Part shown: in pieces, positions 1,797-45,754 of the stretch
Layout: each line of letters opens with the position of its first letter
Position numbering within the stretch: the first letter of the stretch is position 1
NCBI GenBank assembly: GCA_964036045.1
Contig: OZ038388.1
Coordinates: 35,418,497 to 35,482,496 of the forward strand
Source of the DNA: Eutreptiella sp. 'Long Island Sound 2002'
Taxonomy: Eukaryota > Euglenozoa > Euglenophyceae > Eutreptiales > Eutreptiaceae
Direction of reading: 5' to 3'
DNA length: 64,000 bases
Program-made: the position numbers and the translations under genes
Notes under the pieces: generated by a model
Database searches by the model: none
The model's input: the letters and a program-made list of their open reading frames with translations, nothing else
Told to the model about the DNA's origin: nothing

Positions 1797-1811
1797 GTAG
1801 GTAGGTAGGTA
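1797..1811 (-). repeat. (TACC)n tract at the LINE A 3' end
   Basis: The plus strand reads GTAGGTAGGTAGGTA, which is (TACC)n on the minus strand. It abuts exactly the point where the second LINE copy begins (1796). Many LINEs end in a short microsatellite instead of poly(A), so this is taken as the 3' terminus of LINE A. Confidence 0.6.
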
Positions 1812-3100
1812 TCTTCGGGAGCTCGGGATGCCTCCTTTGACATTGCAGGAAGAAGGTCTTACCAAGAAGACGTCCTGTCCCTCCCACCGCCCTATGTCAG
1901 GTGCCTCTTGAGCCGCTCCCGCATGTGCTTGGGAAGGCATTGTCGCGGCCACCCGGTCCATGTGTCCCAGGTGGGAGGGTGTCCCCACATGTGTCCATGG
2001 GTAGGGCCACATGCCCCCTCCTTTGGGCGGCAGCTCTGGGGGCTGCCCAGCCGTGTGGAGTATCTCTCACCACAAGGGGTATTGCTCCCGCTAGTCTACG
2101 GTACGACCGCCTCACCCTTGTGATTTGAGTTGCGGGGCCACTCTGCTTGGCAGGTGACCCCCTCCTGGACTGTGTACTGGCTCGCCTGTCACCGGTTGCT
2201 TCCATGGCTCCGGGTGATGTTTGCCATGGTCCCCGATGCAGCCTGGCCGGGCTCGGACCAATGGCCTTGGAGTACCGCTCCTGCCAATGGCCCGGTGGGT
2301 CGGCTGGGTCGCCCCAGTGCGTCCGACCCATGGGGTATTGGTTCTTTCCTGTCCCTCGGCCGCCCTACGTGTGTGCAGTGTCCTGGGCTGCTTGGCTCCT
2401 GTTCACCGGTGTGCCCGCGCGGTTTGCTGTGTTGCGTCTGCGGTGTTCTGGGCCACTTGGCTCCTGTTCACCGGTGTGCTCGCTAGGTGTGTTGTGTGGC
2501 GTGTGCGGTGTCCTGGGCCACTTGGCTCCCGTTCTCCGGTGTGCGCGCTGTGTGCGGTGCGCGCGTGCCATGGGTGGTTGTGTCCCTCTTCCTCCCCCCT
2601 TGATTTTCATTTTTTTTAAAGAAAAGGAAACTGCAGGCACGGGCACAGGCAGCTGGTGCGGCGGTGCAACAGTGTTGTGTCCTCTGGCGTGTGTCGTCGG
2701 TGCTGTGGCGGCGGTCGCGCCCCAGGGCCGCGGCTCGCGCGTCCTGATGTACACGGGCTTGGGTCAGGGTGGGTTTGGTGAGGTGTCTCTTTGCTTCTGG
2801 AGCTGGCTGGTTAGGCGGCTGTGTGGGCTGTGGGTGTGGGCTGTGGTTACGTTGTTCCCTCGGCGGGCCTGGTTAGGAGTCAAGGGTTAGCGGTTTCGGG
2901 GTGTGGCTCGGGTTTGATTTGTGTTTGGGTTTTGGCTCGGTTAGGCGGTTGCAACGGTAGCGGGCCTGGGTTCGGTGTTTTTGGGCGTAGTGGTGCTCGT
3001 TGTCGTGTGCGTTGGCGTCCTTCGGCGTCCGGTTCGTTTGGTGACTTTTGGGCGGGGCCTGGCGTGGCGCCCCGTGGTGGTGGTTTGCTGGGTAACGGGG
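1812..3100 (-). other. LINE A 3' non-coding region
   Basis: This lies between the end of ORF6 and the (TACC)n end. Open frames here overlap one another and have simple composition. It contains a 65-bp tandem repeat (2381-2571) and an A-rich stretch on the minus strand near 2608-2620. No gene is recognised. Confidence 0.5.
2381..2571. repeat. Three copies of a 65-bp tandem repeat
   Basis: Copies start at 2381, 2446 and 2511. Each begins T(C/T)CTGGGC, continues CTTGGCTCC and contains CCGGTGTGC. The units differ by a few substitutions. They lie in the LINE 3' region. Confidence 0.8.
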
Positions 3101-4034
3101 TTAGGTGGCGGCGCCGCTGGCCGAGGGGTCAGGCGCGTCGTGTTGTGTGGTGCGCACGGCTCCTGGGGTGCTGTGGGTGCCGCCGGTGTCGGTGCGCCGA
3201 CGCTTGTGGGGTGGTGAGGGGGTGTGTTTGTGCGGGGCTGGGCTTTGGGTGATGTCCCACAGGCGGATGCCGTCTTGCTGTGTCTCCTGGAGGGTCTCCC
3301 GCAGGTGCCTAAGGACATACGGGTGGTCCTGGGGCGCGGGGAGGTTGCGGGGGTGGACTCCCAGGGGTTGGAGCGCATCGGCCAGCATGGCTTCCCATGC
3401 GGCCTGCGGCATCCACCCCCCCCGCCGGCCGGAGGCGGCAGTTCTCCACCGACCCCTTGCGGGGCCGATGGACCAGGCCCTCGAGGGAGGGCTCTCCCCG
3501 GGCCCACTTTCGCAGCTCCCAGAGCTGCGTGTGGGTCCAGCGCTGCCACCATTGTCCCTGGGCGGGCCTGCGGTCTTGGGCGGAGGAGTGGGCGTGGGTG
3601 GGTGTGACGGGGTCGTGGGGACCGGTGGCGGTGGCGGGCCTGGCGGATTCCTCGTAGTCCTGTTCCGTGGGGGTGCGCGGGGAGTGGGGGCGCGCGCGGA
3701 TGTGGACCCGCGGGTGTGCGCGCACGGTCTCCGCCTCGGGGTTGGGCGGGGACTCGCGGCGGCGGCGGTAGTGGGGCATGCGCTGCATGTGGGCTGTCAT
3801 CGGGGGTTGGTAGGGGGGCGGGGATGCTGCTGGCGGACCCTGGCGTCCTTCTGGCCTGGTCAGGGGGCGGTCCGTGGGCCTGGGGTGCGGGGTTTGGGAG
3901 GTGGCGGGACGAGGTGCGTCGTGCTTCAGCTAGCTCCGCTGTGAAGGTGGTGGCGGCGGCGTCGGTGACGGTGGGGGGGCGCCGTGCTGGGCGCTGCTGC
4001 CTCCGGGCCTGGGACGGCTGGGGCCGAATGTCAT
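3101..4034 (-). CDS. LINE ORF6, unknown protein, frameshifted
   Basis: The ATG at 4034-4032 overlaps the TGA of ORF5 (ATGA), so translation could couple to ORF5. Coding character moves between frames at runs of C. The MTFGPSRPRP start frame (frame of 4034) shifts to a frame containing FTAELAEARRTSS near 3977, then to the frame with MTAHMQRMPHYRRRR near 3815, and finally to the frame starting MPQAAWEAMLADALQ near 3420, which ends at 3101. A Trp-rich segment, QGQWWQRWTHTQLWELRKWA, is the most distinctive feature. The C-terminal part is Pro/Thr-rich with a basic KRRRT patch. About 290-310 residues would result if the frames are joined. No family is recognised. The frameshifts may be sequence errors in homopolymers. 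Confidence 0.5.
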
Positions 4035-4570
4035 AGAGGACGTCCTCGGGGGGGCGGGCTCGCGCTGCCGTCGTGGCGCCGGGTTTGGACTTGGGTTTGG
4101 GCTTGGCTGCGGGTTGCGGTCGTGGCGCGCTGACGGGTTTGGGTGGCTGTTTGGCGGCGGTCTTGGGTCTCGGCTGGGTCGCGGGTGTGGGCCTCGTCGG
4201 GGCGTGGGCCTTGGCGGCGGTGGGGTTGCTCGCAGTGGGGGCGGGTTTGGGGGCCCGTTTGGGAGGTGTCCTTCGCGGCCTGGGGGGTGGAGTGCTGGAT
4301 GAGGACGTGGTGGTGGTGGTGGATGAGGTGGTCGTGGTGGTGGAGGTTGTGGAGTCGGAGGCGGGAGAGAGGGCTGTGGGAGACGGCGGAGGGTCCTGGG
4401 CTTTGGGGGCGGGCGGATGATGCTGGGTCCTGTAAGTAGCGAGAATGAGCCCGCAGGTTCGGGCACCGGGCGTGTGCGCCCCTTTCCCCTGGTGATCCGT
4501 GCGTGCTGGTGCTGGTGTGGCGGCGTTGTCTCGGCTGCGGGGGCATGTGGGTTACCCAGGGGGTGGCCAT
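4031..4570 (-). CDS. LINE ORF5, His/Gln/Thr-rich protein
   Basis: The proposed start is ATG at 4570 (MATPWVTHMPPQPRQRR), overlapping the last codons of ORF4, whose TAA is at 4554-4552. The frame stays open for 179 codons to the TGA at 4033-4031. The product is low-complexity and basic, with an HHHDHLIHHHHH stretch and many Gln, Thr and Arg residues toward the C-terminus. It resembles a nucleic-acid-binding tail by composition only. No domain is recognised. Its neighbours on both sides overlap it by a few bases, which supports its being part of a packed series of ORFs. Confidence 0.4.
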   Translation of the reverse strand: MATPWVTHMPPQPRQRRHTSTSTHGSPGERGAHARCPNLRAHSRYLQDPASSARPQSPGPSAVSHSPLSRLRLHNLHHHDHLIHHHHHVLIQHSTPQAAKDTSQTGPQTRPHCEQPHRRQGPRPDEAHTRDPAETQDRRQTATQTRQRATTATRSQAQTQVQTRRHDGSASPPPRGRPL

Positions 4571-5297
4571 ATCTGCTCCGGGACGTGCGGGTGTGTTTGC
4601 TGGAGGTAGTCGAGGGTCTGGAAGAAGCATCGCTGGATGCCGGGCATGTCCTCCTCTGTGAGGTGGGGGTAGTTTTGGATGGGGGTGTCTGGGCCCGGCC
4701 ACAGCAGCGCCATGAGGCGGGCTGCCACCATGTATGGGCAGAGCTGTAGGGTGGTGGAGCAGGGGGGGGTGGGTCCCCTGCGGATTGGGGGGGCTTCCCT
4801 CTGCTGGGGGCGCAGCGTGACCACCCACACCCATCGGTCCGTGGGGATCCCCCAGGTCCGTTGGGTCCACTTGGCGAGGCAATACATCGCCCTACCAAGG
4901 CCCTGGCAGCTGCTGCGGATGGAGAGCAGCGTGTCCAGGGATTTGCGTTCCCACGTGCACCAGATGTGGGGGTCGCCCGGGTCGTCCCCCCTGGCGTACG
5001 TGTCGGGGCCTGGGTTGTGTGGGGGGGGGGGGTGTAGTCGGCGGGGAGGAGGGAGTCGGTGCCGTGTACCACCGAGTGGTTGGTGGGTGCGTGGTAGTGG
5101 GTGGTGGAGAGGGTGTAGTGCAGATTGTACATGAGGGTCATGTACGTGGAGCGGGCGGGCTGCCGCTCGTCGGGGGTGGGGATGTCCCCCGGGACGTGGT
5201 GCCTGAAGTTGCTCAGGGAGGCCATCCGGGCTACCCATGTTTCCCGCTCCCACTCTTTGGTGTTGTCGGGGGTGGCGCCGGGTGGGGGGTGGGCCAT
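4552..5297 (-). CDS. LINE ORF4, unknown protein, one frameshift
   Basis: It starts at the ATG at 5297 (MAHPPPGATPDNTKEWER), only 12 bases after the TAG of ORF3. The N-terminal part, including WVARMASLSNFRHHVPGD and TYMTLMYNLHYTLSTTHYH, is in one frame. At the C-run near 5021-5030 coding continues in the next frame with IWCTWERKSLDTLLSIRSS, LGRAMYCLAKW and CPYMVAARLMALLWPGPD, ending at the TAA at 4554-4552. The composition is that of a folded globular protein of about 245 residues with many Trp, Leu and Tyr. No family is recognised. The shift at a run of ten C may be an assembly error. Confidence 0.5.
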
Positions 5298-5309
5298 GTC
5301 GGGCTCGTG

Positions 5310-5850
5310 CTAGCGGGTGCTGCCCTTGGTGTCCACCCGCCCCGGCACGGGGTGTCCGACTAGGTGTCGCCCCCAGTCGATGGGGGGCACCCAGATCCGG
5401 CTCCCCGTGGGGGGCGGGCTCTCGCCGTCTGGGGTGGCGCGTGGGGGGCGGTCGTGTCGGGCGACGTGGAGGAAGGCGTCGAAGTAGAAGTCTCTGACGC
5501 CTTCCCCCAGGGTGGCCGCCTGGACCAGGGTGGCCGCCCGGATGCGGGTGCTGGTGCCGGAGGTGCGGAGGCAGAGCACGACGTCGTGTTCCCCGAGTCC
5601 CCGGAGGTGCTGCCGTACCGCTGCGGGGTCGCGCAGGGCGTAGGGTTCGGCCGGTGCGGCGGCTGGTGGTGCGGGGTGTGATGGGGGGGGTGGTGTGGGT
5701 TGGGGGGGGTGGTCGTCGCTGTCGCGCGTGGGGTCCGGTGATGGGGTCTCTTGTGGCGGTCGCGGGAGGGGGGATTCGCGGTGGCGTGTGGTGGCGGGGG
5801 TATCGACGTCAATTGGCTGGTGCTGGCTGCCGCGTGTTGCGTCCGTGGCC
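5310..5850 (-). CDS. LINE ORF3, C-terminal part (beyond the gypsy-1 insertion)
   Basis: This continues ORF3 after gypsy-1. Reading through one copy of the target site gives RDQATDATRGSQ, followed by a Pro-rich linker and then a well-formed domain: EPYALRDPAAVRQHLRGLG, EHDVVLCLRTSGTSTRIRA, GVRDFYFDAFLHVARHD, and the end DTKGSTR followed by TAG at 5312-5310. The frame agrees with the segment ending RDQAK on the other side of the insertion. The domain is not recognised. ORF4 starts 12 bases downstream. Confidence 0.5.
5846..5850. repeat. Gypsy-1 target-site duplication, left copy (TGGCC)
   Basis: TGGCC immediately precedes the left LTR and is repeated at 17236-17240 immediately after the right LTR. 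Five bases is the usual size for this superfamily. Confidence 0.9.
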
Positions 5851-6635
5851 AGAAAAGCTTATAGTGGTTTCAACACTGTGTTTTTGCTTCTCCTGCTGCT
5901 TGCTGCTGGTGTAGGGTTTCCTGCTGGTTGTTTTGGAGATGAAAAAATTTTGTTTGCTGAAATACAGTCAATCCAGGATAGCCCAAGCCAGAAGTATGCA
6001 AGGAGAAGAGAATCAGGATCAAAGCATGAAGGGCTGCAGTGTAAACAGTGAAAGATGAAAGGATATTCACAGAAACCGCAACTCAGGTCAAATCGGATTG
6101 CATATTCACAAAGATAGCCGAAATGTTTTGGAAAAGAGTTGGAAAGCTGCCCCATGGTCACTCTATCTCCACAGTGCCATCTCAGGAGATGTGCACTCTT
6201 TGTTTTGGGTCCCATATGTGCTGAGGTGGCAGGGCATGTGGCGATGAGGTCACTGCCATGTCACATGGGATCTTCCTACTTAGCTAGGCTGACCGGGAAT
6301 TGAACCCAGGACCTCTCAAAAAGAGGTGCCCAGCCCCCTAGGGTGCATACCACTAGGACAGCTAAGAATTCATGAAAAAACATAGATAAATTCATAGGCT
6401 CTGCCCTGGATATGTCAGTACTCAGTCAACTCAGGAAAAGATGATTTGCCTCACATTGGAAGGGGATTAAGGGGTCCACTCCATATCCTGATTGGGTGTT
6501 TGGTTCCATAGGTCAAAATGTGTTATCACCACTTTTGGTAGGGCCAATACTAAGATAGAAATGCCTGGATGCTCAGTGCATCCCTAATACAACTAGGGTA
6601 TGCCTCAAAGCATTGGAAAAGCACTTTTTCTTACT
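5851..6635 (-). repeat. Gypsy-1 3' LTR (left)
   Basis: On the minus strand the LTR runs AGTAAGAAAAAG...CTTTTCT. It matches 16450-17235 with about 20 substitutions and one indel. The ends are AG/CT instead of the usual TG/CA; the boundaries are fixed by the TSD outside and by the polypurine tract inside. Confidence 0.95.
6279..6366 (-). other. tRNA-like segment inside the gypsy-1 LTR
   Basis: On the minus strand there is an A-box-like TGTCCTAGTGG and a B-box-like GGTTCAATTCC at tRNA-like spacing, with a hairpin (ACCTC, T-run, GAGGT) between them. The outer bases CTTAGCT and AGCTAAG can pair. The same segment is at 16879-16966 in the other LTR. No convincing 7-bp acceptor stem or anticodon arm is present, so it is called tRNA-like, not a tRNA gene. 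It may act as a pol III promoter or be a SINE relic. Confidence 0.45.
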
Positions 6636-6645
6636 CCCCCCTTGT
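6636..6645 (-). promoter_or_regulatory. Gypsy-1 polypurine tract
   Basis: On the minus strand ACAAGGGGGG immediately precedes the 3' LTR start AGTAAG. This is the expected place and composition for the plus-strand primer of reverse transcription. Gypsy-2 has CCAGGGGGG at the equivalent place. Confidence 0.8.
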
Positions 6646-7925
6646 GCTGTGGTGGCCACCAATGTCGCACTTTAGGAAAAAGGGATTTTTTCTTGGCCTT
6701 TCCTTGGTTTCCACATCTACTTTAAAATACCTATAGTTTCCCTCACACAGAAAAATGGGCGCTCACCATGGCTGGCGCTCTTTTGCTGCTCTGTTTGTAA
6801 CATTTCCTACAGAAGACTCCGCGCTCATGGCGCTGCCGGGGCTCCTTTGGCTTGGTTGGGTTAGTTTGGGAGCATGCCAAATAATGTGCAAGTGCATCCC
6901 TCCCTCAAAGACGCAGCGCGACACAAACCCAACGCAAGACACAATATACACACCCGCATGGGTTCTCGTAAACCTGCTGGCGACCTGTGACCTGTTTTAG
7001 GGCATGGGAGTCGTAAAAAAAAATTAAACTGCCCCTTGGTGGGGTCTTGGGTTCTGCTCAGTCTCTCCAGGCTGCTGCGTTTCGGCCCGAACACGGCCTA
7101 CTCAGCGAGGCTGCGTGTGGGTATCTGCAGAGGCAGGAATGGGATAATTATCGACGAATCCACGCAAAAGCGAAGCGACGACACCAAAATCCGTCAAATG
7201 ACGGCCTAGAATTTTTCTAAGACAACACCCCTGAGCAGAATCCAATTGTACATCAGAAGCACATTTTTATAAAAATTATAGTCATCTCTAGAATTTTTAA
7301 ATCAAGAAATTCCTACGCATAAAAAGGCGGCGCGCAGGAGCGGCTCCTAGCGAAGCGCCGGAAAATGCAGAAATAATGGCATTATAAACGTATGTCTCAC
7401 GTAGTCTTGAAAATGACGAGACACACATTAATAAATAAACATACAGATTCCACCCACACTAATAGAAGTATCAAAAATCCAAGAATTCGAAAATCAACGA
7501 AAAGACTTCAATGAATCAGGTATAACCTACAGGTATGCTCGTCTCGTATGCCGCATACCCATTGCTCGTCTCGTGTCTCCGTGAACGAGTCTTGTAGCAG
7601 CGCTAACAACGATAGAACGCGATAGAGGGATTGATTAGAAAGATTGCAGATGATTAGAGGTCAGATCAGGGTGATTAGACATACACACAAGTGCAGAGCG
7701 ACGTTCTTCGCTTGCGCCCCGTTTTTCCCCTCACCTTGCTTCACTCTCCAGCGGTAGGTAAGGTAGGTACGCCCAGGTGGGGCCACCCCCTGGTGGTGTT
7801 CGTGATTGCGGATAAGATGGGCAGGTTTGCCCAACACAGTGGTGCATGCTCGTGCATTCACACACGCATTAAAGGGTAGGCCACGCGAAGTGCGCACGGT
7901 AAACCTTGTTTAGGCTACCGAGGGG

Positions 7926-7959
7926 CTCCTCGGTACGTTCTTTAAGAGAACCTGAGGAG
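7926..7959. promoter_or_regulatory. Conserved hairpin in the gypsy-1 3' region
   Basis: CTCCTCGG (7926-7933) pairs with CTGAGGAG (7952-7959), and GTTCT pairs with AGAAC inside it. The same structure occurs at 25856-25889 in gypsy-2, where the outer stem is perfect. It lies in the conserved non-coding block. A role in RNA export, packaging or 3' processing is only inference. Confidence 0.5.
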
Positions 7960-8906
7960 TCCCTTAACGCTTGCTTGCTTGACAGGGGAGCTGATCCTTC
8001 AGCGTGTTTGCGGACAGTGTATTATAGGTCACACTGAGAAGCGTATAATACGTGGAGTGTGGCTTGGTTCCTCCGCCGCAAACACCCCTTCATTTGCCTT
8101 TGCTTTACAGCTGGGCAGGTAGAGTGATTGGTGCAGCAGCATACCATTTTTTTCATGCCCTGCTAAACAAGGGCGCAGATCACACAATCAAGTAACTCCG
8201 CCTCTGCCTGTGGCAGAGCAGGGAGTCCAACTTCATCGACATCTGCGCCGTGCACGCAAAAAGAGCACCTCTTCCCTCCAAGCCCTAGCAGGGGAAACGC
8301 GTTGTGGCGTCCCCTGTTAGGCCACAGTTGCTTAGCAGCGCTGTGTTCTCTTGTCTTCTTCACAGGAGGGTTGTTAGGACCCACGACATGTTCTTCAACA
8401 ACACCCAGTAGAGTGTGCGTGTTGGAGTGGTAGTGCTGAGTGGGGGCTTGAGCCAGTTGCAGCAGTGCTCGCCCACCAGGATGGTTCCACTGTAGGGTGT
8501 GTAGGACCTGTAGTGCGTGTGTCACTGTCCCACCCGTTTCCTGCAATTTTAGCAGGGTTGGTGGGCTGTGGCAGTGGTTAGGTCAGTGTTTTGGCCACTT
8601 AGCAAAACGGCGTTTTCATGCCTTCGTAGCTTTTGGCCACCCCTCCCTGTAGTAGACAGATAGGTAGGGAAAACAATACCTGGATTAGTACGCTGGGTAT
8701 TCCCCAAAGGTTTTGCGCCAGCACAGAAGTTTGGGGGCTTACGGGAGGGGAGACCCGGGGCGTACCCCGTGGCATCAATAAGCCAACCCTCCAGGTTTAG
8801 CAAGCGTGCAGACTTGGGTATAATTAGGACACCACTTCTGCGGCTTGCTCTCAGGACCTTAGGAATAGCACAGTAACACATACGCTTAGGCAGGTAAGGG
8901 TAAGGT

Positions 8907-11900
8907 TCAGTCCCTAGCTTTAGTCTTGGAGGCAAGCGTCTCAGCGAGCCTCAGCAACTCACCAAGGTTGTTCTGGGACAAGTAGTCAACCAGAACTGAG
9001 TTTAGGCGTCCCTCAGGTAGAACAAACGCAGAGAAGGGCTCCCAGGTGGCCTCTTTGACTCCGAACCCTTCCCAGAGGGTGAGGAAGCGCCAACCCTGGC
9101 GATAGCGGTGGCGTAGGACAGACTTCACCAGGTAGAAGCCCTCCTTAGCCATCTCCTCGGCGTTCATGTCGGGGAGTTCACCTTCAACTTCCATAGGGCT
9201 GGCAGCCCCTTGTAAGTCCAGAGCGGCGATTTTCTCGTCGTTCAGCTCCCACTCCTCCCCACAGAGGTCTTCAGGATCATAGTAGCGCTTCAGGTGTTGA
9301 GCAGCGCACACCAGGGTCCCCCCTAGACGGGGAGAACACCGCAGGGTGATACGGTGTCCATCCACTGATAGAATCTTGTACGGCCCAAAGTATGGGTCAT
9401 CGCTGGTAGAGCGTGGCCAGGCGGGTAGTCGACTGTGGTGCACCAGCACCCAGTCCCCCTCTTGGTAGGTGGCCGGTACTCGGTGCTTGTTCTTCTTGTT
9501 CCACTGACGCTCCCTCACTCTCTGGAGCATAGCCTTGGCCTTGTCCACCTTTGCTTGTTGCTCTTGGACCCATTCACCCACAGAAGAATGGGTGTCCTCT
9601 GGATAGGGGGCATGTAGGAACCATGCCGGGCGCCCTAGGAATAGCTCATGGGGCGAGTAGCCAGTAGCTGAACTCTCTTGGGAGTTCATCATCAAGGATA
9701 TGACGGGGAGTAGTCTCACCCAGTCTCTGGTGCGTTCAGTTTTGCACCATATCCGTACATTCTCCTTCAGGACACGGATCTGTCGCTCACATAGGGGGTT
9801 GCTCCTGTGCGAGTAGGGAATCCCCGTAGACACCTGGACATTGAGGGACCTCAGGACCCTCTTGTACCAACCGGTATCTGACCGTACTCGTACGTCCTCA
9901 TCGGAGTTGATCTCCTTGGGCGCCCCATAGACACAAAACCACTCCTCCAGGAGTATCTTGATAGTCTCCTCCCCGGTAATGTGCTTGGTACATGGGAACA
10001 CCCTGGTAAACCTGGTCAACCCACAGGTTACCAAGAGGGCGAAGTCATAGCCACCGAACTTCGGCATCTGCGTGTAGTCCACGTATAGAACACTGTTAGC
10101 ACAGTGAGGGATGGGCAGGGTTGAGTAGAGACCCCTGTCCCTGATATCCCCTGGTTTACTGGACCTACACGGGCACTTGTCCACGATAGGCTGGAGGGCT
10201 TTCCGCAGTTGGTCGTCAGTCCACGTAGTGTGGAACCACTGCTTGAACAGCCTCAGGGTACGGTCAGCACCCACATGACCGCTGGACTCATGGGTCCACT
10301 TCAGCAGCGCTTGGACTCTGTCACTAGGCACCACAATGCGGTCCTCGTGCCAGAGGTAGCTCTTGTCCCTCTTCCACTGGTCTTGGTTGACCAGGAGGGG
10401 TTCAAGGCGTTTCTCCAGGCGCTTGTAGATATCCCCAAACTCCTTCAGGTACTCCGATTGTTGGAGTCCATCCAGGGGGCGTATCATCGTCATGTTGGGG
10501 TCCAAGTGGACGTCCATACGGCTGAACGCCTCCTTAGCCAGCGCTTCAGACCGGGCACCAATCAGGGCGTCGAAGTTGTTGCGGCTGATGTAGTCGGCAC
10601 ACTCGTTCTTCACTCCCTGGATATGGTGTACCGTCAGCCGTAGTTGACTGAGGTAGGTCCACCAGCGCCGTAGCTTGGCCTTCTCAGGTGGGGGACCCTT
10701 CTGCAAACTGCGGACCGGTTCTTGGTCGCACAGCCAGACCACAGGGTTACTCCCCAACAGTCGTGCTTGTGAGGATAGCACCAGCATACCCGCGAGCAAT
10801 TCCTGCTCATAGGTGGAGTAGTTCCCCCTGGCCTGGTTCCACTTCCAGTTCCAGTGGCCCAGAGGTACTAGGACCCACTTGTCGTCAGGGTAGCTGTGCT
10901 TGAGGGTTCCATCTCGGTTGAGACCCTCCGTCCCCCATTGGGAAATGGCCGAGTCGAACTCCTCCTTCTCTAGTGCTTGCCATTGGAACAACGTTCCACC
11001 ACCGCCCACATTGCTGGCGTCGGTCACCAGGATAATCTCCCCTTGTGCCCTAGGCACGCCCAAGCACTTAGCGTTGGCTACCTTGTCTTTGAGCTCGTCA
11101 AACGCTTGTTGCTCTTGTGGGCCCCAGCGCCAAGTAGTACTCTTCTTGATCAAGTCCGTCAGAACGGCGCTGGTGTAGGTGAAGTTTTTGATGTGGCGGC
11201 GATAGAAGTTGCACGCCCCAATGAAACTGCGTACATCATGAAGTCCTTTCTTGGGGTCTTCGTGTCGTACCTTGGCATCCATCAGGGGTTTGGCCTTACA
11301 GGCCGCTGGGGTCCACCACCCATAGCCAACATCAAACCCCAGGTACTCAATGGTCTCCTGCATGAACTCACACTTCTCTAGCTTGAGTCGTGTGTGGTTC
11401 TCCTGGCAGACCGCAAAGAACTCACCCAAGAGGATTGGGTGATCCTCCTGGGTATTGGTCCCGAGGCATACATCGTCGACGTGAGCCTCCATCTGGGCAC
11501 CACGGGATATGAGCTCCTGCACCTTAGGTCTCCTTCGTAGGATGGACAAGATCTTGTTCATCAGCTCTTGGAATAGAGCGGGTGCGTTAGCCACGCCAAA
11601 CGGCATGACCTTCCACTTGAACATCCTCCCCTGAGGGGTGATGAAGGCCAGTAGTTCCTGTGCGTTGGGCGTCAGGTCAACTTGCCAGAATCCGCTCCTC
11701 TTGTCCATTTTGGTCTTGTAGCGACAGGAGGCTATCTTCTCCAGGGTAGACTCCATATTGGGAATGGACCCTGAGTGGTTCAGCGTTTTCTTGTTCAGCT
11801 CTCCGTAGTCCACTACCAGCCGTTTGGCTGTAGACCCAGGTTTAGCCACCAGGAAACAGGGGCTGCAGTGTAGGGGGTAGTCCCCGTCCTTGTACTCCAG

Positions 11901-13838: not shown

Positions 13839-13841
13839 TCA
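13796..13841 (-). promoter_or_regulatory. Gag/Pol readthrough site: TGA CGG with a downstream stem-loop
   Basis: The gag stop TGA (13841-13839) is followed by CGG. Sixteen bases further on, GTACCCAA and TTGGGTAC form a perfect 8-bp stem with an 11-base loop (13822-13796 on the minus strand). UGA-CGG followed by a 3' stem-loop is a known class of stop-codon readthrough signal in plant RNA viruses. Pol continues in the same frame. Confidence 0.65.
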
Positions 13842-16349: not shown

Positions 16350-16432
16350 CTTCGTTCGCCCTTCTGCTTATATGTGACTGTACTCGGCGCACTGGATGTA
16401 CGGCACGGGGTTGCTGCCGGTGCGCAGAGACA

Positions 16433-16449
16433 GTCTGCCTCTTGCTACC
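16433..16449 (-). promoter_or_regulatory. Gypsy-1 primer-binding site
   Basis: On the minus strand GGTAGCAAGAGGCAGAC lies directly after the 5' LTR end (CTTTTCT). With the last LTR base it reads TGGTAGCA, as expected for pairing with a tRNA ending in ACCA. Gypsy-2 has GGTAGCAGAGAC at the same place. The tRNA species cannot be named from this alone. Confidence 0.65.
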
Positions 16450-17235
16450 AGAAAAGTTTATAGTCGTTTGAACACTGTGTTTTTGCCTCTCCTGCTGCTT
16501 GCTGCTGGTGTAGGGTTTCCTGCTGCTTGTTTTTGGAGATGAAAAGCTTTTGTTTGCTGAAATACAGTCAATCCAGGATAGCCCAAGCCAGAAGTATGCA
16601 AGGAGAAGAGAATCAGGATCAAAGCATGAAGGGCTGCAGTGTAAACAGTGAAAGATGAAAGGATATTCACAGAAACTGCAACTCAGGTCAAATCGGATTG
16701 CATATTCAGAAAGCTAGCTGAAATGTTTTGGAAAAGAGTTGGAAAACTGCCCCATGGTCACTCTATCTCCATAGTGCCATCTCAGGAGATGTGCACTCTT
16801 TGTTTTGGGTCCCATATGTGCTGAGGTGGCAGGGCATGTGGCGATGAGGTCACTGCCATGTCACATGGGATCTTCCTACTTAGCTAGGCTGACCAGGAAT
16901 TGAACCCAGGACCTCTCAAAAAGAGGTGCCCAGCCCCCTAGGGTGCATACCACTAGGACAGCTAAGAATTCATGGAAAAACATAGATAAATTCATAGGTT
17001 CTGCCCTGGATATGTCAGTTCTCAGTCAACTCAGGAAAAGATGATTTGCCTCACATTGGAAGGGGATTAAGGGGTCCACTCCATATCCTGATTGGGTGTT
17101 TGGTTCCATAGGTCAAAATATGTTATCACCACTTTTGGTAGGGCCAATACTAAGATAGAAATGCCTGGATGCTCAGTGCATCCCTAATACAACTAGAGTA
17201 TGCCTCAAAGCATTGGAAAAGCACTTTTTCTTACT
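16450..17235 (-). repeat. Gypsy-1 5' LTR (right)
   Basis: Upstream LTR of gypsy-1 on the minus strand, 786 bp, about 97% identical to 5851-6635. It carries the tRNA-like segment at 16879-16966. It ends at the TSD copy 17236-17240. Confidence 0.95.
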
Positions 17236-17240
17236 TGGCC
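17236..17240. repeat. Gypsy-1 target-site duplication, right copy (TGGCC)
   Basis: Matches 5846-5850 exactly and abuts the outer end of the right LTR. Confidence 0.9.
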
Positions 17241-34935: not shown

Positions 34936-35586
34936 TGAGTGGGTGCCGGCTTGGTGGGGGTAATGGGAGGGTGTGCCGGTGAGTCCTGCCGTGAGGTCGG
35001 TGAGGCCCAGTTGGTGCATGGCGTCCCGGACGGCTGTGTCGGTGGCTGTGGGTGGGCCGGTGCGGTCGTCCTCGGTGGGGGCAGCGTTTAGGTCGCCTAT
35101 GATGATGGTGGGTGCCAGGAGGGAGAGTCGGCGGTACGCCACGCTCAGGGTGTCCAGGAAGTCCTTGGTCTCCCCCCCGAATGGGACGTGCGTGAGTAGC
35201 ACGTTTAGCTGCCATCCGGGCCCCACGCACTCGTACGCCCCGAGGCGACCATCCACTCCGAGGTCGGGGTGGGCATGCACCGTGACCGACGTCTTGTGGT
35301 AGAGGGGCACCCCCCGTTCCCAGTGGGCGTGATATTTGTTCCCCTCCGGGTCCAGGATCGGTGCTGGTTCGGGTTGGTCCGCTCTGCGGAGGGCTTGCTC
35401 CAGGAACCCCAGGAGGTCTGCGCCTTGGGGGTGCGGCCCGGGCATGGCTTGCAGTGTGGCGGCCTTGGTGGGGTCGTAGGTGACCGCGGGCTCGTTGAGG
35501 ATGTTGATGCGGGCGTGGGCTTCCGTAGGTGCCGGTTTCTGGGGACCGGTAGCTGGGGGGGCGGGCCGTGTCTGGCCCTGGCCCCG
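34936..35586 (-). CDS. LINE ORF2, AP endonuclease part
   Basis: Same frame as ORF1 and directly after its TGA. The domain starts near ARINILNEPAVTYD and includes GVDGRLGAYECVG, NVLLTHVPFGGE, the catalytic IIIGDLNAAP, and TGTPSHYPHQAGTHS, where gypsy-2 interrupts. SRID and TGHRPL, which complete the fold, are on the other side (from 23836 down). APE-type endonucleases nick target DNA to prime reverse transcription. The first Met is MPGPHP at 35445, inside the domain, which supports production as an ORF1-ORF2 readthrough fusion. The alternative is that the TGA is a simple mutation of an Arg or Trp codon. Confidence 0.8.
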
Positions 35587-35589
35587 TCA
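35587..35589 (-). promoter_or_regulatory. TGA CGG junction between LINE ORF1 and ORF2
   Basis: ORF1 ends NLLDA-TGA, and the same frame continues RGQGQTRPAPPATGPQ into the endonuclease. UGA-CGG is a known readthrough context. A G-rich hairpin (GGGGCCAGGGCC against GGCCCGCCCC) starts directly after the stop. Confidence 0.5.
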
Positions 35590-38500
35590 GGCGTCGAGGA
35601 GGTTGATGACGCCCTGAGCTGCGGGTGCCTTGCGGTTCCGCTTCTGGGGCTGGAGTAGGGCCCATGCATTGTGGACTTCGCCCGTGTACTCGGTGCCGGT
35701 GAGGTGCTCCGTGTCGGGGGTGCACAGCTGCATGGGGACCGTCTCACGACCGGCTTGGTCTCGCCAGAGTTCGATGGTGCGCCCCACCTTCTTGTCGTTG
35801 GGGGTGGCGGGGTCCCACTTGACGTGGATCTTGAACCCCTGGTGGTCCCCGGTGACGAGGTACCGGTGCTTGACCTCCCCTGCGGCCCATATCCACTTGG
35901 AGGGGCCCGCGGCCGTGGCGTACTCGAACGGCAGCTGCACCCGGGTACCGATGGCGTATTCGGGATACAGGGCAGCGGCTTCCTCTTTGGTCCAGCTCCC
36001 CGACTTGGCTCTTGGCTTTGGCGCGGGTTTGGCCTTTGCGCGGGCCTTGCGCTTCTGCGCACCTTGGCGGCGCCGGGCAGCGGGTTGTCCCCGTTGGGGA
36101 GGTGCGCCCTGGGGCTGCTGTACGGGTGCGTGGCCCGGTGCAAACACGGGGTGTTCGCGGGCGGCTGGGACGTTAGGCTTGGACGTGGGGACGGGGTCCT
36201 TCAGCTGGAACACTTGCTTGGTCATGAGGCCAAGCACTTCCTCGGCCTCCTGCGGGGCGTCGGGCGGGTCCGTGGGCCAGGTGAGGAGCCGGTGCCCGGT
36301 GCCTGCCCCGTGGCGGCGCATGTGGGCCGTGTAGCGGGTGGCGTGGCGTGTCCACGCTGGGGTGCGTTCCGGGGGGAGGGGGCCTGCTGGCGCCCCCTGT
36401 GCCCAGTAGAAGGCGTGGTGCAGCGCTTCCCAGGCTGCCTCTGGGGCGTGGGGCATGCGTGCGGCGAGTCGCAAGCGGTCCCCTCCGCGTGGTGGGGGCG
36501 GGACTTCGTCGTCAGGGGCGTGTGCCATTGCCCGTCTGACCTTGCCGTGGTCGTCCCATTCCACCGTCCACCAGATGTCCCGGTGTTTGAGGATGTGGAC
36601 CTCCGTGGTGGTCGGGGGGGCGTCCATGGCGTCCCAGCTGACGAGCTGGATGGGGCGGACCGCAGGGTGAATCTTCGGGGGTGCTCGCATGTTGAGGATT
36701 TGGTGGATGTCCTCGGCGGTAGGGCCCGTGTCGGGGGCGTCCTGCGCTGCTTGGGCTAGAGGTGGGGAGGGGCGGTCCTCCCAGAGGCGGGAGGCGGACA
36801 CCGTGGCGTACATGGCTGCGATCAGGACGTGTTCCGTCAGCCCTTCCACCATGAGGTGGTTTTCCCCCTCCAGGTCTCGGCGGATGGTGGCTTCCGCCTT
36901 TAGGGTGAGGAGTGCGATGGCGCGTTTGGGTCCAGGTGTGGCGTGCGTCGGCTCATCTGGCGGGCGTCCGTTGGATGGGTTGTGGGGGGGGCGCTTCTGG
37001 AAGGGGGATGGTCCCACCGCCAGGTGCTCGACAAGGTGTAGCGGTATGGCGTGGTGGCGGTCCGCTGCGGGCAGGAGGTAGGGGTGTGGGTCCCCGGGTA
37101 TCGTGCCGAGGTATATGCCCCCCCTGTAGGTAGGGGTGGGCAGGGGTTGCTGCAGAGCGCCTACGCATGGTAGCGCGCACCGAGGGTTGCAGTGGGTGCA
37201 TTGGGCTGTTATGGGGTGCGGTACCGCGTACACGGTGAAGGGCCCTACCGTGCGCTGGATGTGGCGGGGGATGATGGTGCGGAGGTCCGCCACCCGTGCC
37301 GTGCGGCTTTCGCCATAGTATATCCAGAGTGTGTCCTCCAGTGCCATTTTGGGGCGTAGCTTGCGGGCAAGTAGGTTCAAGGTGCTTTTGTGGGTGGCCT
37401 CGGTGACGGTGCCGGGTCCAGCGTTGATGCGTGGGAGCAGGTGGTTTTGGTGGTGTGCCGCGGCCCGTCTGCGGGCGGTGTGGAGGGCGGTGCTGTCCGC
37501 GGGAGGGGGCGCGTGGTGGGTGGGCCTTTTGCGCGGGGTCGGGGCGACGTGTAGTGGATGCTTCCATGCCGGGCGCGGGTGGTGTTGCAGTGGCTGGAGG
37601 CCAGGGTAGGTGGTGAAGGTGTATATGGTGACGGGGGAGCGCTCATGCGTGGCCTGGAGGTAGTAGTGGTCGCGACCCGTGTTGTGGGTGACGATGACGT
37701 TTGGCGTTGGTATGTCGTAGTGGAGTGCGGTATTGGGGAGTTGTTTGGTGATGCGTGCCGTCGCTTCTCCCGTTTTGGGCGCGGTGTCGTGGGGCACGAG
37801 GATGTGGACTGCCCACGCATCGTGGGCAGGGAGGTCGAGGTCCGGTAGGGTGGGATGAATGGGGCGTCCCCGGAAGTGTGCGAAAGCTGGGTTGTCGCGT
37901 GCCGCCGTTTCTTTGATGATGGACGGTGCCCACTGGGGTGGCGCCCCAACTTGCTGGGCCATGGCAGCGACGGCGTGGGCGATCGCTGTGAGGTCTGGGC
38001 CGATGCCAGGCTGGTCTGCCAGTGGCTGCAGGCCCCCTTCTGGTGCGGGCTGGTGCCACCATAGGGTGTAGCCCTTTTGTGTGTTATCGTGGGGGGTGTG
38101 CACGAGGCCCTGGTGGTTGGAGATGGCGGTCTTGAGGGCTTCCGCTGCCTCGCGGTGGAGGGTGCGCGTGTAGGCCCAGACTCCGGTGGGGGGGGCCGCC
38201 CCGGTCTGGGATTCGGCCGTGGTGGGGGCCGGCTCGAGGGTGTTACTGGTGAGGGAGGGTCTGTGCAGCCCTTCGTGCAGGGGGGCGCACACGTGTGCCC
38301 ATCTGTCCGCCCATCCCTGTTGGGCGCTTCCTGTGTCTGCCCCTGTGGGCAGTCGCACGATGACCACGTGCCAGGGATGTCCCCGGTACTACGGTGGGGG
38401 GTGTGGTGTGCTCGTGAGCGTGTAGCCACACTTCGGTGTCTGCGTTCGCCGTCACGTAGTCCTCTCCCTCCGCTGTGTGGACGTTTTTGACGGCGGCCTC

Positions 38501-39648
38501 TCCCTCTAGGGTGAGGAGGAGGTGTGTGCCGGGGGGCTGTGTGTGCATCTTCGCGTCCCGGAGCCACAGGTACGTGAGCGCCACGGCGCCGGCGAGGATT
38601 TCCCCCCACGTGAAGGTGCCTTCGGGTGATGCCCACTGCAGGGGCAGTGTGCGGCGTCCCCGCGAGTCGTTGGTGGCATGGTAGTCGTGGGGGAGGTGAC
38701 GTTTGGTGAGCCGGTGGGGCATGCGTTCGGTGGTAGCTGTGGGGGGGTCCCAATTACATTCCTCCGGGGGGGGTGCGTCTGCGTCGTCCTCCTGGGGCTG
38801 GGCCAGCGGCAGCGCCTGTGCATTGGGTGTGGCGTTGGGTAATCCGCTGTGCGTGAGGATGTAGAAGCCCTCGGAGGTGAGTTGGAGGACGATGTCCCAC
38901 TTCGCCGTTTGCTCTGGGGACCACTGGTGGGGCCCGTCCTGCGGTCGGTGGAGGGTGACCTGGTGGCCCCATCTCCAGCTGTGGTAGGCGAGGAGGCTGA
39001 GGACGGTGTCTGGCTCCGGGTCCTCCAGGCTTTCCACGAGGGTGTACTCGTCCTCCCATTCTTGTGTGGGGGTGCCTGGAGGTGGGGGGGCGGTGGTGTA
39101 CCCGTGGAGTCCCGGCCCCGTGACGTTGGGCAGGTCGTGCTCGAGGGACGCCCGGTACTCGGCGGGCCCTCTGCTGGCTTCGTGGGTGGGGTGGTGGCGC
39201 CGCAGGGCGTTGGACAGGTGCGTCCAGGGCGCCCGCTCGCGGGGGGGGGGGGCGGGGGGGCATTTTGCGGGCTGGGGTGCGCGGGGCCGCTTGCTGCGGG
39301 CTCGAGCTCCGGCGGGGTGAAGTCCATATGATGCTCTGTGTCCTCCGTGTGTTGGAGTTCCAGCTCTAGCAGGCTGTCAATGTCAAGGGCCATGGGGTCA
39401 TCGTGTGTGTTCACGTGTTGCGGGGCTGCTTCATGGCACGGGGGGCGTGTGATGCTGGTGTTCGGGGCACGTGCGGCGGCCGGTGCGGGGTCGTGCGCCG
39501 GTGTCCGGGGAAGCGCGCCGTTTGGCGTGGTTGTGGTGTGTGGCTGCTCCCTGGTGGCTGTCCTGGCCGGTGGTGTTGCCCCTGTGTGCGGTTCGGGTTG
39601 TGGCCGGTGGTGGGCGTTGAGCTGGCGTGAGGTGTGCGGGGTTTTCAC
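35587..39648 (-). CDS. LINE ORF1, main part, frameshifted
   Basis: Three frames carry the protein-like sequence in turn. The first (39648 to about 39250) includes MALDIDSLLELELQHTED. The second (about 39245 to 38390) includes EDEYTLVESLEDPEPDTVLS and TWGEILAGAVALTYLWLRDA. The third (about 38390 to 35587) is a 900-residue open stretch. The first shift is at a run of C at 39241-39256. The long part contains a cysteine cluster, CTHCNPRCALPC, near 37165-37200, a basic Lys/Arg/Pro segment (RRRQGAQKRKARAKAKPAP), and a C-terminal module (IGTRVQLPFEY, WAAGEVKHRYLV, FKIHVKWDP) that looks like an SH3/Tudor-type barrel by pattern only. LINE ORF1 proteins usually bind the element RNA. This one is far larger than typical ORF1. 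No family match is claimed. Confidence 0.6.
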
Positions 39649-41299
39649 GGCTGGTGCCGGTGGGGTGGGGTGCGGAGTCGGTGTGGCGCGGCTTCGTTCC
39701 TGTGATGGTGGGCTGTGTTGTCCCGTGTCCCCGGGTGGGGAATGGGGGTGCGGTGTGGTATGATGGTGTTGTGTTGTGTGGTGGACTTCTCGGTGGGGGG
39801 GGGGGGGGCGTGTCCAGGTCTGGTGGGGTGGGTTGTCGCCCGTGGTTTGTCCTCTGGCGGTGTGGGGCAGCCCCGCGCGGTCTCTTGATCGTCCTCCTGG
39901 CGTGTTTCAGTACGTGGGCCGTGCGGGGTCGGTGTAGCGTGGGGCCAGGGGTCCCCTGGGGCGGGGCGTGCGGGACTGGAGTGTCGCAACCAGGAGGGTG
40001 TGTTCGTGTGGTGCTTGGGGGTGTCGGCCCACCGTTGAGTGGGCCCAGTGGTGCGGGGAGCGCCGTGTATGGGGCACGCGCGGGCTATTGCGTTTGCGGG
40101 GTCCGCGGGTCGGTGGGTCGCGGCATCTTGGGCGTGCTGTGGCCCCGGTGAGGTTCCCACCGGCGGTGAGTGGCGGTGTGTGGCTGGGGTGTATCGTTTC
40201 CACGGTGGGGGGGGGGCTATTTGCTCGGGTGTGGGGTGGGCCCGTGGTAGGCTGCCGGCGGGTAGCGGGTGTCGGAGCCTCACTGTGGTTGGGTCTTCCG
40301 CGGTGTCCCCTTGGTTCGTCCCGTGGTGGTCTCTGGTCGGCTGGCTGAAGGGGGTTTTTGGGGTGTACCGCATCCATGGCGGCACCATTGTGTGTTGGGG
40401 CGACGCAGCAGTGGGTGCGGCGGGTTGTGGGGGTGGGGCTTGTGTCGGTGTCGTCCGTGTGGTTGGCGGCGGTGTGTCGTGTGTCGTCCTCGGCGGCTCC
40501 TCATGGTGGTCTGTTGTGGTGGTGCCTGGGGGGTGGTCTTGGGCTTGGCGGTTCCTGGGAGGGTGCGGAACATGCGGGGTCGGGTTGGCTGGGGGGGGGG
40601 GGCGCGTGCGTGGGCTTGCGTATTTGCCTTCTGCTCTCCCCGCGGTCTCTTCCTCTGCCTTTCCCTTGCTCCTCTCCTTTCGCTGGCTTGTTTGGCTCTG
40701 TTTTTTTTTTTTTGGGAGGGGGGTGGCTGGGTTGCTGTGCGTGGGTGTGGGTGTGTGCCGGTGCCGGCGCCGGTGTGGGCGTGGGTGTCGTGGGGGACGG
40801 GGGTCAGGTGGCCGATGCCCTCCACTTCCACAATCACCTCCACGTCCTCAACCTCCAAGAGGAGTTCCTCCTGGGGGAGAGCGACAGGGCCATGGCGAGG
40901 AGGGATTACCCACTCCTCGGGCACAGGAACACTGGGGCCCGGAGGGTCCCAGGTCCACACCCAGTGGACCCCAGCAGGGGTGAGCCGGGGGGCGCGCCGC
41001 ATGGAGCGGCGGGGCACGCCTGGAAGCGTGGCGCCTCCTGATCCGAACCACAGGGCAGGAGTTGCAGTTGGAGTCTGCAAGATCCAGGCCCCATGGAACG
41101 GAACCCACGTCGGCGTGGTCAACCCAGCCGGCCGTCCGTGCTCATACGCCGTGTTGACGTACCACGGCAGCGACGGAGGCGGGTTGCTGGGGAGACGTGG
41201 GGTTTGTGGGGGGACTGGCACAGGCACTGCAAAAGCAGCAGTCGGCGCAGTCGCTGGAGGAGAGGCCCAACGGCGGGGCACACTCTTCTTTTTAACCAT
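39649..41299 (-). CDS. LINE ORF1, N-terminal part, frameshifted
   Basis: The ATG at 41299 (MVKKKSVPRRWASPP) opens a frame whose first about 230 residues look coding. They include TPTWVPFHGAWILQTPT, GVHWVWTWDPPGPS and an acidic patch, EELLLEVEDVEVIVEVE, followed by basic SQKKKNRAKQ. Runs of T and C near 40585-40702, 40203-40213 and 39797-39810 then shift the likely frame. The 40388-39645 frame is Pro/His/Thr-rich and ends at the point where the 39648 frame begins. The first part is repeated at 390-1. It could be a separate small ORF instead of the start of ORF1. Confidence 0.45.
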
Positions 41300-42712
41300 A
41301 CTGCTGACAAGAAAAAAAATTAAAAAAAAAAAAAAAGAGACGAAAAGAACAAGTTATGCAAGCTGAAGGGAGTGGTCTGACAGATTGGAACAAGTCCGGC
41401 CGATATCTGAAGCGCGCACGTGCGCTTTGTCTGAGACCAGGGGGGAAAGCAAGAAGACCCAAAAAAAGTGCCTGACTTGAAAACTCTGCTGTTTGTTGAC
41501 TGTTTAACCACAGACTGTTTGTTTGCAATAGTCCAGAGAGAGTTAGGAATAGGCGGAGTGTGACTGACTGTACACTGCTGACTGAAAACACTGTTGTGCC
41601 TGAGTGTAGTAGATACTGGAAGGATAGTTGGTTTTGAGACCCTAAGGTTAGGTTTGTATGGCACTGCCCGCACTGGAGTCCGTACCCCAGCAAATCTGTG
41701 CGTTTGTCAACCTGCACAATCACTATATCAGACGGATGCAATATCATCGACGCGCTGGGCCAAAATGAAGTAAATCGAACTTGTGAGTCGACTGAACGAA
41801 TGGCCGAAGCATCAAAGGGGGACTATGAAGACTGAAGTCAATGGGAGACTATGACAACTGCGAAGCCTCCAGGAAGATGAGTACTGCAGACTGAGGCCCT
41901 TCAAAAAGATGCGATCTGCGTGAAGAACGACAACCGTCCTGCGTCGTCCCCAACGCGCGAATTGGAGGATGAGCAAGGAGTACAACAAGATCCAGCCGAA
42001 GTGCAGAAGAGAATGAGGACAGCGCCAACGCGTCTGAAAGGAATTCGAGTACAACACGTAGCTGTGAACCTCAAGCAGGGCAGCGTCGAAGCCTTGAAGA
42101 GCGACAGCGACCTGATGGGAGTCTGAAGGATCGTAGGAGTGAGGAGTCGTCAACAACGACAAGATCGGCACCAATCACGACACCGCAGCGTCGAGGAGCC
42201 ACGACGACGCAACGAAGTACGCCCGCGAGGTCTTCGACGAGGGGGGAGTGAAGTGGACCCACAATCCTAAGCTCCACAGGTTAAAAAGGTTTTGACAGAT
42301 CAACACATTGATGTCATTTTACTGGCATGCATGTCATTTGCTGATGCATGATGATCATGATTTGGATGGTCGCTGATGCATGATGATCATGATTTGGGTT
42401 GTCATTTATACTGATTTTGCATCATTGCAACCCTGTGTCTCTAAGGCTATTGGAGTCGCTTTTACTACTATTTAACACAGTTTCGTGCTATGTGCCCCTC
42501 TTTGAGTGGGAGCCTTTGTGGGCTTTTGGCGCTATTTATTCTTTTGCTCTTGGTAGGAAATACCCGTGGTGGTCACATGTGCACAACACAAATAACAAGC
42601 AAAGGGCAATAGAGAAAGCAAACAAGCAAAGTGTTGTAAAGTAAACGAAGTGAATGGGAAACTGCGAGTGTAAATAAGTCAGTGGTTTGTCACATACTCT
42701 GTGTTTGTACAG
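40910..42712 (-). repeat. LINE A 5' end, direct repeat of 1-1796
   Basis: 1803 bp, about 98% identical to 1-1796. It contains the leader (42712-41300) and the first 130 codons of ORF1. At 42712/42713 the sequence diverges from the other copy into unrelated DNA, marking the LINE 5' boundary. The leader holds the paired 32-bp repeats (42340-42403) and no supported ORF. Confidence 0.85.
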
Positions 42713-45638: not shown

Positions 45639-45639
45639 T

Positions 45640-45735: not shown

Positions 45736-45754
45736 CTGGTAGCATCGCTATTCC

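What the first reader, a model, noticed from the sequence alone, without database searches (positions are those of the whole stretch)
1797..42712. An about 18-kb LINE with four extra ORFs after the reverse transcriptase ORF
Seen: one strand, continuous C-rich coding from 41299 to 3101 once two gypsy elements are removed, with EN-RT-RNase H-finger in the middle and ORF3 to ORF6 after it, all inside a unit bounded by a shared 5' end and a (TACC)n end. Known: LINEs normally end shortly after ORF2 and are 4-8 kb; giant multi-ORF retroelements are known mainly from bdelloid rotifers (Terminons), with a different RT type. Inference: this is a new giant non-LTR group carrying accessory genes, including a RING-like protein.
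Basis: partly seen in the sequence, partly recalled or inferred. Interest (0 to 1): 0.92.

Follow-up and report, generated by a model that had tools for sequence, protein, structure and literature searches.

The report
Giant LINE with four reading frames
The window holds a damaged copy of a very long (about 21-22 kb when complete) non-LTR retrotransposon, probably from a euglenid, that carries two extra old genes after its reverse transcriptase gene and sometimes appears to duplicate kilobases of target DNA when it inserts.

Summary
The core observation holds, with corrections. On the minus strand lies a LINE (endonuclease, reverse transcriptase, RNase H-like region, CCHC finger) that continues far beyond the finger and ends in (TACC)n. 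The element starts near 40,809: the 'shared 5' end' is a 1.9-kb target-site duplication. The window copy is 5'-truncated (about 16.5 kb); two copies reach 21.1 and 22.2 kb and start with an array of a 65-bp unit that recurs in the 3' UTR. One sister locus, with 48% RT identity, has ORF3 and ORF4 homologues in the same order and the same tail, so the accessory ORFs are old. Inside the window's family, however, ORF3 and ORF4 show no purifying selection, unlike ORF1 and ORF2. Kilobase-scale duplications appear at 3 of 7 loci examined (1 complete, 2 as lower bounds). COX1 points to a euglenid host. Functions of ORF3 and ORF4, the LINE clade and the cause of the long duplications remain untested.

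The parts
40810..42712 (-).
   Evidence: right flank matches it over 1,907 alignment columns at 97.3%, ending at the LINE start
35587..40809 (-). LINE 5' part: truncated leader and ORF1 (frameshifted; largest piece 35587-38367). ORF1 ends in a domain conserved in the sister lineage
34939..35586 (-). ORF2, first part (endonuclease)
   Evidence: PF03372 in copy L023
23839..34938 (-). gypsy-type LTR element inserted in ORF2 of this copy (not part of the LINE)
19165..23838 (-). ORF2, second part: end of endonuclease, RT, RNase H-like region, CCHC finger; broken by frameshifts here
17236..19168 (-). ORF3, first part: RING-like Cys/His cluster and P/H-rich stretch; an ATG overlaps the ORF2 stop at 19168 (ATGA)
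5851..17235 (-). gypsy-type LTR element inserted in ORF3 of this copy (not part of the LINE)
4552..5850 (-). ORF3, second part: globular C-terminal half conserved in the sister lineage
3126..4551 (-). ORF4 (basic P/K-rich part, then a Trp-rich conserved part), frameshifted here; boundaries mapped by hand from copy c27
1812..3125 (-). 3' UTR
2371..2565 (-). three 65-bp units in the 3' UTR, same unit as the 5' array of the longest copies
1797..1811 (-). (TACC)n 3' tail
1..1797 (-). 3' copy of the target-site duplication (continues about 100 bp past the window edge, in L031)

Best explanation
This is a 5'-truncated, LTR-element-interrupted copy of a giant LINE lineage. A long element is about 21-22 kb: a 5' array of 65-bp units, ORF1, ORF2 (APE endonuclease, RT, RNase H-like region, CCHC finger), ORF3, ORF4, a 3' UTR with a few of the same 65-bp units, and a (TACC)n tail. 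It most likely moves by target-primed reverse transcription: ORF2 nicks the target, copies the RNA from its tail, often stops early (5' truncation), and the second strand is cut at a variable distance, from about a dozen bases to 1.9 kb, giving short or very long target-site duplications. ORF3 and ORF4 are old passengers, present on both sides of a split with only 48% RT identity; I infer that they are RNP or nuclear accessory factors. In a euglenid, spliced-leader trans-splicing of a polycistronic RNA (recalled knowledge, inference) would let four ORFs be expressed; coupled reinitiation at the ORF2 stop is an alternative. Shown here: anatomy, tail, truncation, flanking duplications, conservation of ORF order in one sister locus. 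Inferred: mechanism, expression and all functions of ORF3 and ORF4.
For: 40 scored copies (window included) at 97-100% identity among 1352 first-look candidates; 6 of 10 fetched copies run to the same tail with ORF3 and ORF4 in place and a further 3' locus, L033, is contiguous from ORF3 to the tail; single open ORF3 of 1,073 and 1,149 aa in c11 and c21, open ORF4 of 474 and 535 aa in c27 and c09, counted stop to stop; DB protein P0136 joins RNase H-like region, finger and RING-like part in one frame. Sister lineage (RT 48% identical over 88%), one locus: ORF3 homologue 27% over 256 aa, pairwise E 2e-11; ORF4 38% over 99 aa, pairwise E 2e-6; last ORF1 domain 34% over 110 aa, pairwise E 3e-10, endonuclease 50% over 288 aa; same (ACCT)n tail; 31 of 34 scored sister ORF2 matches have no internal stop. 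Long duplications. Purifying selection on ORF1 (28 of 49 shared variants synonymous, 12.7 expected) and ORF2 (40 of 66, 18.6 expected).
Against: Within the window's family ORF3 (11 of 40 shared variants synonymous, 10.7 expected) and ORF4 (12 of 29, 9.4 expected) show no purifying selection. The RING-like part is in frame with ORF2, not with the overlapping ATG, and 7 of 8 copies have a second in-frame stop there, so its start is unknown. Pfam finds nothing at E 1 in ORF1, ORF3 or ORF4 of this family. The ORF3 fold prediction failed (pLDDT 34). Each of the six copies that reach the tail has a stop or frameshift somewhere, so no single fetched copy shows the whole plan intact. Only one sister locus was read downstream of ORF2. 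The pairwise E-values are for tiny search spaces. RNase H rests on motifs and a weak fold match; Pfam and a profile comparison with an annotated RNase H were negative.
Confidence: 0.8

Rival explanations
1. An ordinary two-ORF LINE that merely transduced or fused with flanking low-complexity GC-rich DNA in one ancestor; ORF3 and ORF4 are passenger DNA whose long frames reflect the lack of stops in C-rich sequence.
For: Long frames occur in several phases in this DNA; no purifying selection on ORF3 and ORF4 inside the family.
Against: ORF3, ORF4 and their order are recognisable in a lineage with 48% RT identity; 16 database proteins match ORF3 at 60-92% identity over 8-55% of its length, and sister ORF3 clusters P0141 and P0144 hold 48 and 37 members.
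Confidence: 0.12
2. One reading: an 18-kb element with a 1.9-kb shared 5' module (a second element starts next to the tail in tandem) and six ORFs.
For: The 1.8-kb block does occur at both ends.
Against: None of the 10 fetched copies shows the block in its 20 kb; the block ends at the LINE 5' junction and continues into unrelated DNA on the other side (L031), as a target-site duplication must; two other loci show the same pattern with unrelated sequences.
Confidence: 0.03
3. The kb-long repeats flanking some copies are pre-existing tandem duplications or later segmental duplications rather than target-site duplications.
For: Only 3 of 7 loci show them; c09 and c21 have short ones (c21's doubtful), c11 and c27 none; two of the three are lower bounds whose far end was not read.
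Against: In all three the repeat begins at the tail junction, and in the window it ends at the 5' junction; flank identities (97.2-97.9%) are of the order expected from the 94-97% identity between copies; in the cross-locus control only c21's right flank matched other loci, through a dispersed gypsy sequence.
Confidence: 0.15

Closest known systems
RNase H-bearing APE LINEs, I/R1/Tad group including trypanosomatid L1Tc/ingi
   Same: Domain order endonuclease, RT, RNase H, finger (recalled for the group); ingi/L1Tc live in Euglenozoa, as the likely host does
   Different: About 21-22 kb against long elements with the poly-A tract 5-6 kb downstream of Pr77 and duplications of 7-11 nt (PMC4035085, passages); extra ORF3 and ORF4; (TACC)n instead of a poly-A tail; no Rfam ribozyme match in three loci holding 5' regions
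Terminons (giant Penelope-like elements of bdelloid rotifers)
   Same: Giant retroelements, also seen in head-to-tail arrays (PMC6431247, passages); extra ORFs are recalled
   Different: Endonuclease of the APE type here; Penelope-like elements have a GIY-YIG one or none (recalled). RT descent and telomeric location were not tested
Drosophila telomeric TART/HeT-A
   Same: Sequence shared by both ends recalls TART, which has promoters at both ends (PMC4700185, passages)
   Different: Here a 65-bp array at the 5' end and few units in the 3' UTR; dispersed inserts with target-site duplications; four ORFs
Rotifer R9 LINE
   Same: [quoted passage not shown] the length of about 126 bp is recalled)
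   Different: Here 0.66 to 1.9 kb, at unrelated sites, and not at every locus
Bdelloid LTR elements with captured ORFs
   Same: Extra ORFs carried by a retroelement (PMC5408684, search listing only)
   Different: LTR elements

Membership tests
Non-LTR retrotransposon (LINE) | RT together with an APE endonuclease in the same ORF | tested here: met
   (L023 piece of copy c23); P0005 and P0017 carry both domains
Non-LTR retrotransposon (LINE) | No LTRs; constant 3' end with simple-repeat tail | tested here: met
   same (TACC)n end in the 6 copies that reach it, L033 and the one sister locus; the flanking repeats are target-site duplications
Non-LTR retrotransposon (LINE) | Variable 5' truncation | tested here: met
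   c09, c15, c21 and the window copy start at different points; more first-look candidates for the 3' part (unverified counts)
Non-LTR retrotransposon (LINE) | Target-site duplications of variable length | tested here: met
   7 loci: window 1.9 kb, c15 at least 961 bp, c23 at least 656 bp, c09 14 bp in TTG-rich DNA, c21 about 13 bp by mapping (7 bp exact, within chance); none found for c11 and c27
I/ingi group | RNase H domain after the RT, then CCHC finger | tested here: inconclusive
   D-E-D-H-D positions (recalled) complete in c23 and P0049; c09, P0053 and P0136 each lack one or more; low-confidence model ranks RT/RNase H chains first, best E 0.06, none at 0.001; Pfam and hhalign negative
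I/ingi group | RT phylogeny within the group | not tested
   no reference RTs at hand; the 4 PDB sequences matched are L1 ORF2p or an RNA-directed DNA polymerase at E 0.003-0.007
L1Tc/ingi clade | 5' Pr77 hallmark with HDV-like ribozyme | tested here: inconclusive
   no Rfam match at E 1 in L029, L035, L017; the Pr77 sequence itself was not searched
Terminon / PLE | GIY-YIG endonuclease or none | tested here: not met
   PF03372 found, no GIY-YIG family among the Pfam matches
Terminon / PLE | Penelope-type RT by descent; telomeric attachment | not tested
   no RT tree made; a match to RVT_1 does not decide it
RING finger protein (ORF3 N-terminus) | RING profile match | tested here: not met
   no Pfam family at E 1; Cys/His cluster C-x2-C-x11-C-x3-H-x2-C-x4-H-x4-C-x2-C only by eye

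The most novel reading that the evidence does not exclude
A deep lineage of giant euglenid LINEs acquired two genes (ORF3, ORF4) before its radiation and kept them as parts of its replication machinery; they, or the size of the element, are tied to an unusual second-strand step in which the two target nicks lie up to 1.9 kb apart, so that an insertion can also copy a kilobase of host DNA, while 65-bp units shared by both ends renew the 5' promoter array.
Probability: 0.3. Interest if true: 0.87.

Novelty: new variant of a known kind. Interest (0 to 1): 0.75.

Why it matters
LINEs are thought of as compact two-ORF elements. A high-copy LINE lineage of 21-22 kb with conserved extra genes would show that target-primed reverse transcription can carry a virus-sized gene load, and gives a system in which to ask what accessory genes do for a LINE. 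Kilobase-scale target-site duplications would make second-strand cleavage, a poorly understood LINE step (abstract of PMC6895275, seen in the listings), readable from genome sequence and would be a route for LINEs to duplicate host DNA.

Tried and rejected
Rejected: LTR or tandem-element reading of the 1.8-kb repeat; six-ORF reading. Led nowhere: fold prediction of the ORF3 C-terminal half (pLDDT 34); PDB sequence search with ORF3 and with part of ORF2 from mid-RT on; hhalign of three RNase H-like segments against the PF00075-bearing segment of P0149 (negative); Rfam on the window and on three loci with 5' regions; viral-contig scan (no match; the tool says that records of the window's own genome may be left out); tRNA scan; Pfam on flanking ORFs. 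Literature: paper searches. No title or abstract start in those listings described a LINE of this size, but I did not search every wording, and most subscription journals and bioRxiv are not held. Not reached: the third lineage (P0053 type) downstream of ORF2 and the genome-wide count of the duplicated target (genome search did not complete).
Full report
What is there. The window is G000:C11:35418497-35482496 of a 2.28-Gb assembly. On its minus strand lies a LINE copy whose RT domain is clear (RVT_1, E 5e-15). Two gypsy-type LTR elements (pol with RT, RNase H and integrase matches in each) sit in it. A 2.7-kb piece of the ORF1 region gave 40 scored matches, the window included, at 97-100% identity among 1352 first-look candidates. 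I fetched 20 kb around ten of these 40, all plus-strand hits (written c09 to c27 after the first locus number). Nine of the ten run straight across the site of the first gypsy element (34939/23838); the tenth, c13, is broken before it. The six that reach the second site (17236/5850) run across it. L006 and L008, two further copies, agree for the first site and L033 for the second. Six of ten (c09, c11, c15, c21, c23, c27) reach the 3' end, GAAGA(T/C)ACC(TACC)n. Of the other four, c13 is interrupted in ORF2 by gypsy-like sequence, c19 is cut in ORF2 by the 65-bp array of a next copy, and c17 and c25 break off inside ORF3. None of the ten stops at the ORF2 finger with a tail of its own.

Boundaries. 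The block 40810-42712 recurs directly after the tail, from position 1797 to about 100 bp beyond the window edge (L031): 1,907 alignment columns at 97.3% identity. It starts at the tail junction on one side and ends at the LINE's 5' junction on the other, and none of the ten fetched copies shows it. That is the pattern of a target-site duplication. Two further loci show it with unrelated target DNA: c15 at least 961 bp (97.2%) and c23 at least 656 bp (97.9%); in both the whole right flank held matches, so the far end was not reached. In c09 the duplication is 14 bp, in TTG-rich DNA; in c21 it is about 13 bp if mapped on gypsy coordinates, but only 7 bp match exactly, which shuffled sequence also gives (up to 12 bp in 300 shuffles). 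For c11 and c27 none was found in the DNA held. So long duplications are seen at 3 of 7 loci. As a control I compared each right flank with every left flank: apart from the three self-matches only c21's right flank matched other loci (c15, c23), because its target is a dispersed gypsy sequence.

Length. Counting only LINE sequence, the window copy is about 16.5 kb (by hand from the coordinates). Copies c23 and c27 extend further 5' into an array of a 65-bp unit (about 27 units by length in c23, 40 counted in c27), giving 21.1 and 22.2 kb from array to tail. That the array is the true 5' end is inferred. The same unit occurs three times in the window's 3' UTR (2371-2565), and the c23 array matches the 3' UTR of c15.

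ORFs. The DNA is C-rich and has long frames by chance, so I used landmarks and copies in which a frame is uncut. Stop to stop, ORF1 is open for 1,233 aa in c27; ORF2 is open along practically its whole length in c23, where a frameshift near its end lets the frame run on to 2,203 aa; ORF3 is open for 1,073 aa in c11 and 1,149 aa in c21; ORF4 for 474 aa in c27 and 535 aa in c09. Each of the six copies that reach the tail has a stop or frameshift somewhere, and the window copy has many. The ORF2 stop overlaps an ATG (ATGA) in 8 of 8 copies given to the script, the window included. But the RING-like part of ORF3 lies in the frame of ORF2, one step off that ATG, and 7 of the 8 have a second in-frame stop a few codons on; how ORF3 starts is therefore open. 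The RING-like cluster is by eye; Pfam gives no family at E 1 for ORF1, ORF3 or ORF4 of this family.

Conservation. A protein search with the RT piece gave 134 hits (120 listed; only the 8000 candidates sharing most words were scored). The listed ones come from ENA contigs except one JGI protein (P0048) and fall into relatives of 68-95% and others of 41-54% identity. One such sister type (P0049, 48% over 88%) has 34 scored matches in the same genome among 26,749 first-look candidates, 31 without an internal stop. Reading 8 kb behind ORF2 in one of them (L034) showed a 999-aa open frame that matches the C-terminal half of ORF3 (27% over 256 aa, pairwise E 2e-11), then a match to ORF4 (38% over 99 aa, pairwise E 2e-6), then the same (ACCT)n tail. 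Upstream at the same locus (L037), the last ORF1 domain (34% over 110 aa, pairwise E 3e-10) and the endonuclease (50% over 288 aa) are also conserved. I see no RING-like cluster in the sister frame. ORF3 searches returned 16 and 9 proteins, all from ENA contigs. P0136 carries the RNase H-like region, finger and RING-like part in one frame.

Selection, a result against. In an alignment of the ten copies (not all reach every ORF; columns with at least five letters), variants shared by at least two copies are strongly synonymous in ORF1 (28 of 49; 12.7 expected) and ORF2 (40 of 66; 18.6 expected) but not in ORF3 (11 of 40; 10.7) or ORF4 (12 of 29; 9.4); singletons are near expectation. Either ORF3 and ORF4 evolve fast or are relaxed in this family, or the sample is too small. 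Divergence from the sister (27-38% identity in ORF3, ORF4 and the ORF1 domain against 42-50% in parts of ORF2) points the same way: old, but loosely constrained.

Domains. Endonuclease and RT are supported by Pfam in copy c23. The RNase H-like region shows the full set of acidic and His positions (recalled) in c23 and P0049; c09, P0053 and P0136 each lack one or more, and two other rows do not reach it. A low-confidence model (mean pLDDT 37; 10-residue means from 28 to 74 over residues 41-200) ranks RT or RNase H chains in places 1-6, best E 0.06, none at 0.001; hhalign against an annotated RNase H was negative.

Host. COX1 gave 86 matches in the assembly, most of them stop-free standard-code frames on small contigs. 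The one read (C78, 25 kb) has as best PDB relative 8iuf_C1 with 684 bits, next 423; 8IUF is the Euglena gracilis supercomplex (PMC10884005, data-availability passage). The published E. gracilis chromosomes range from 22.7 to 121.4 Mb (PMC11252322, passages), whereas contigs here reach 193.5 Mb or more, so this is probably another euglenid or another assembly. One contig (C42) holds a second COX1 with seven TGA, open if TGA is tryptophan, probably from another organism.

Interpretation. The simplest account is a LINE moving by target-primed reverse transcription, with a giant RNA, two old accessory ORFs and a second-strand cut placed at very variable distance. Trans-splicing of polycistronic RNA, known for euglenids (recalled), would explain how a four-ORF LINE can express its downstream genes. 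Both steps are inference.

Noticed in passing
window 45639-50848: Copia-type element (gag with CCHC, pol with RVT_2 and rve) with a 97-bp direct repeat at its ends, so very short LTRs.
   Followed up: no
window 43135-45680: hAT-like transposase remnant (DUF659, Dimer_Tnp_hAT) next to the 5' target-site duplication.
   Followed up: no
c19 (L019+L020): Two head-to-tail copies 11.35 kb apart: the first is cut off inside ORF2 and directly followed by the 65-bp array of the next.
   Followed up: partly
c25 (L026, from about 6330 to the end): Array of 65-bp units over about 3.7 kb behind the broken copy, probably the 5' end of a neighbouring element.
   Followed up: partly
own genome, many small contigs: COX1 repeated on dozens of small contigs, consistent with a multipartite mitochondrial genome; the large contig C3 near 130.92 Mb also carries pieces.
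   Followed up: partly
G000:C42:17853-19202 (L039): Second COX1 with seven TGA, open when read as tryptophan; best PDB match chain 7jro_a (843 bits): contaminant, prey or symbiont.
   Followed up: partly
protein P0149: A different LINE-like protein (RVT_1 plus PF00075 RNase H) whose end reads into a piece of the sister ORF3, a sign of a nested 5'-truncated insert.
   Followed up: no
L031 614-5317, plus strand: The right flank beyond the duplicated target encodes, against the direction of the LINE, LTR-element-like proteins (aspartyl protease, RVT_1, RT_RNaseH), so the target region may itself lie in or beside a transposon.
   Followed up: partly
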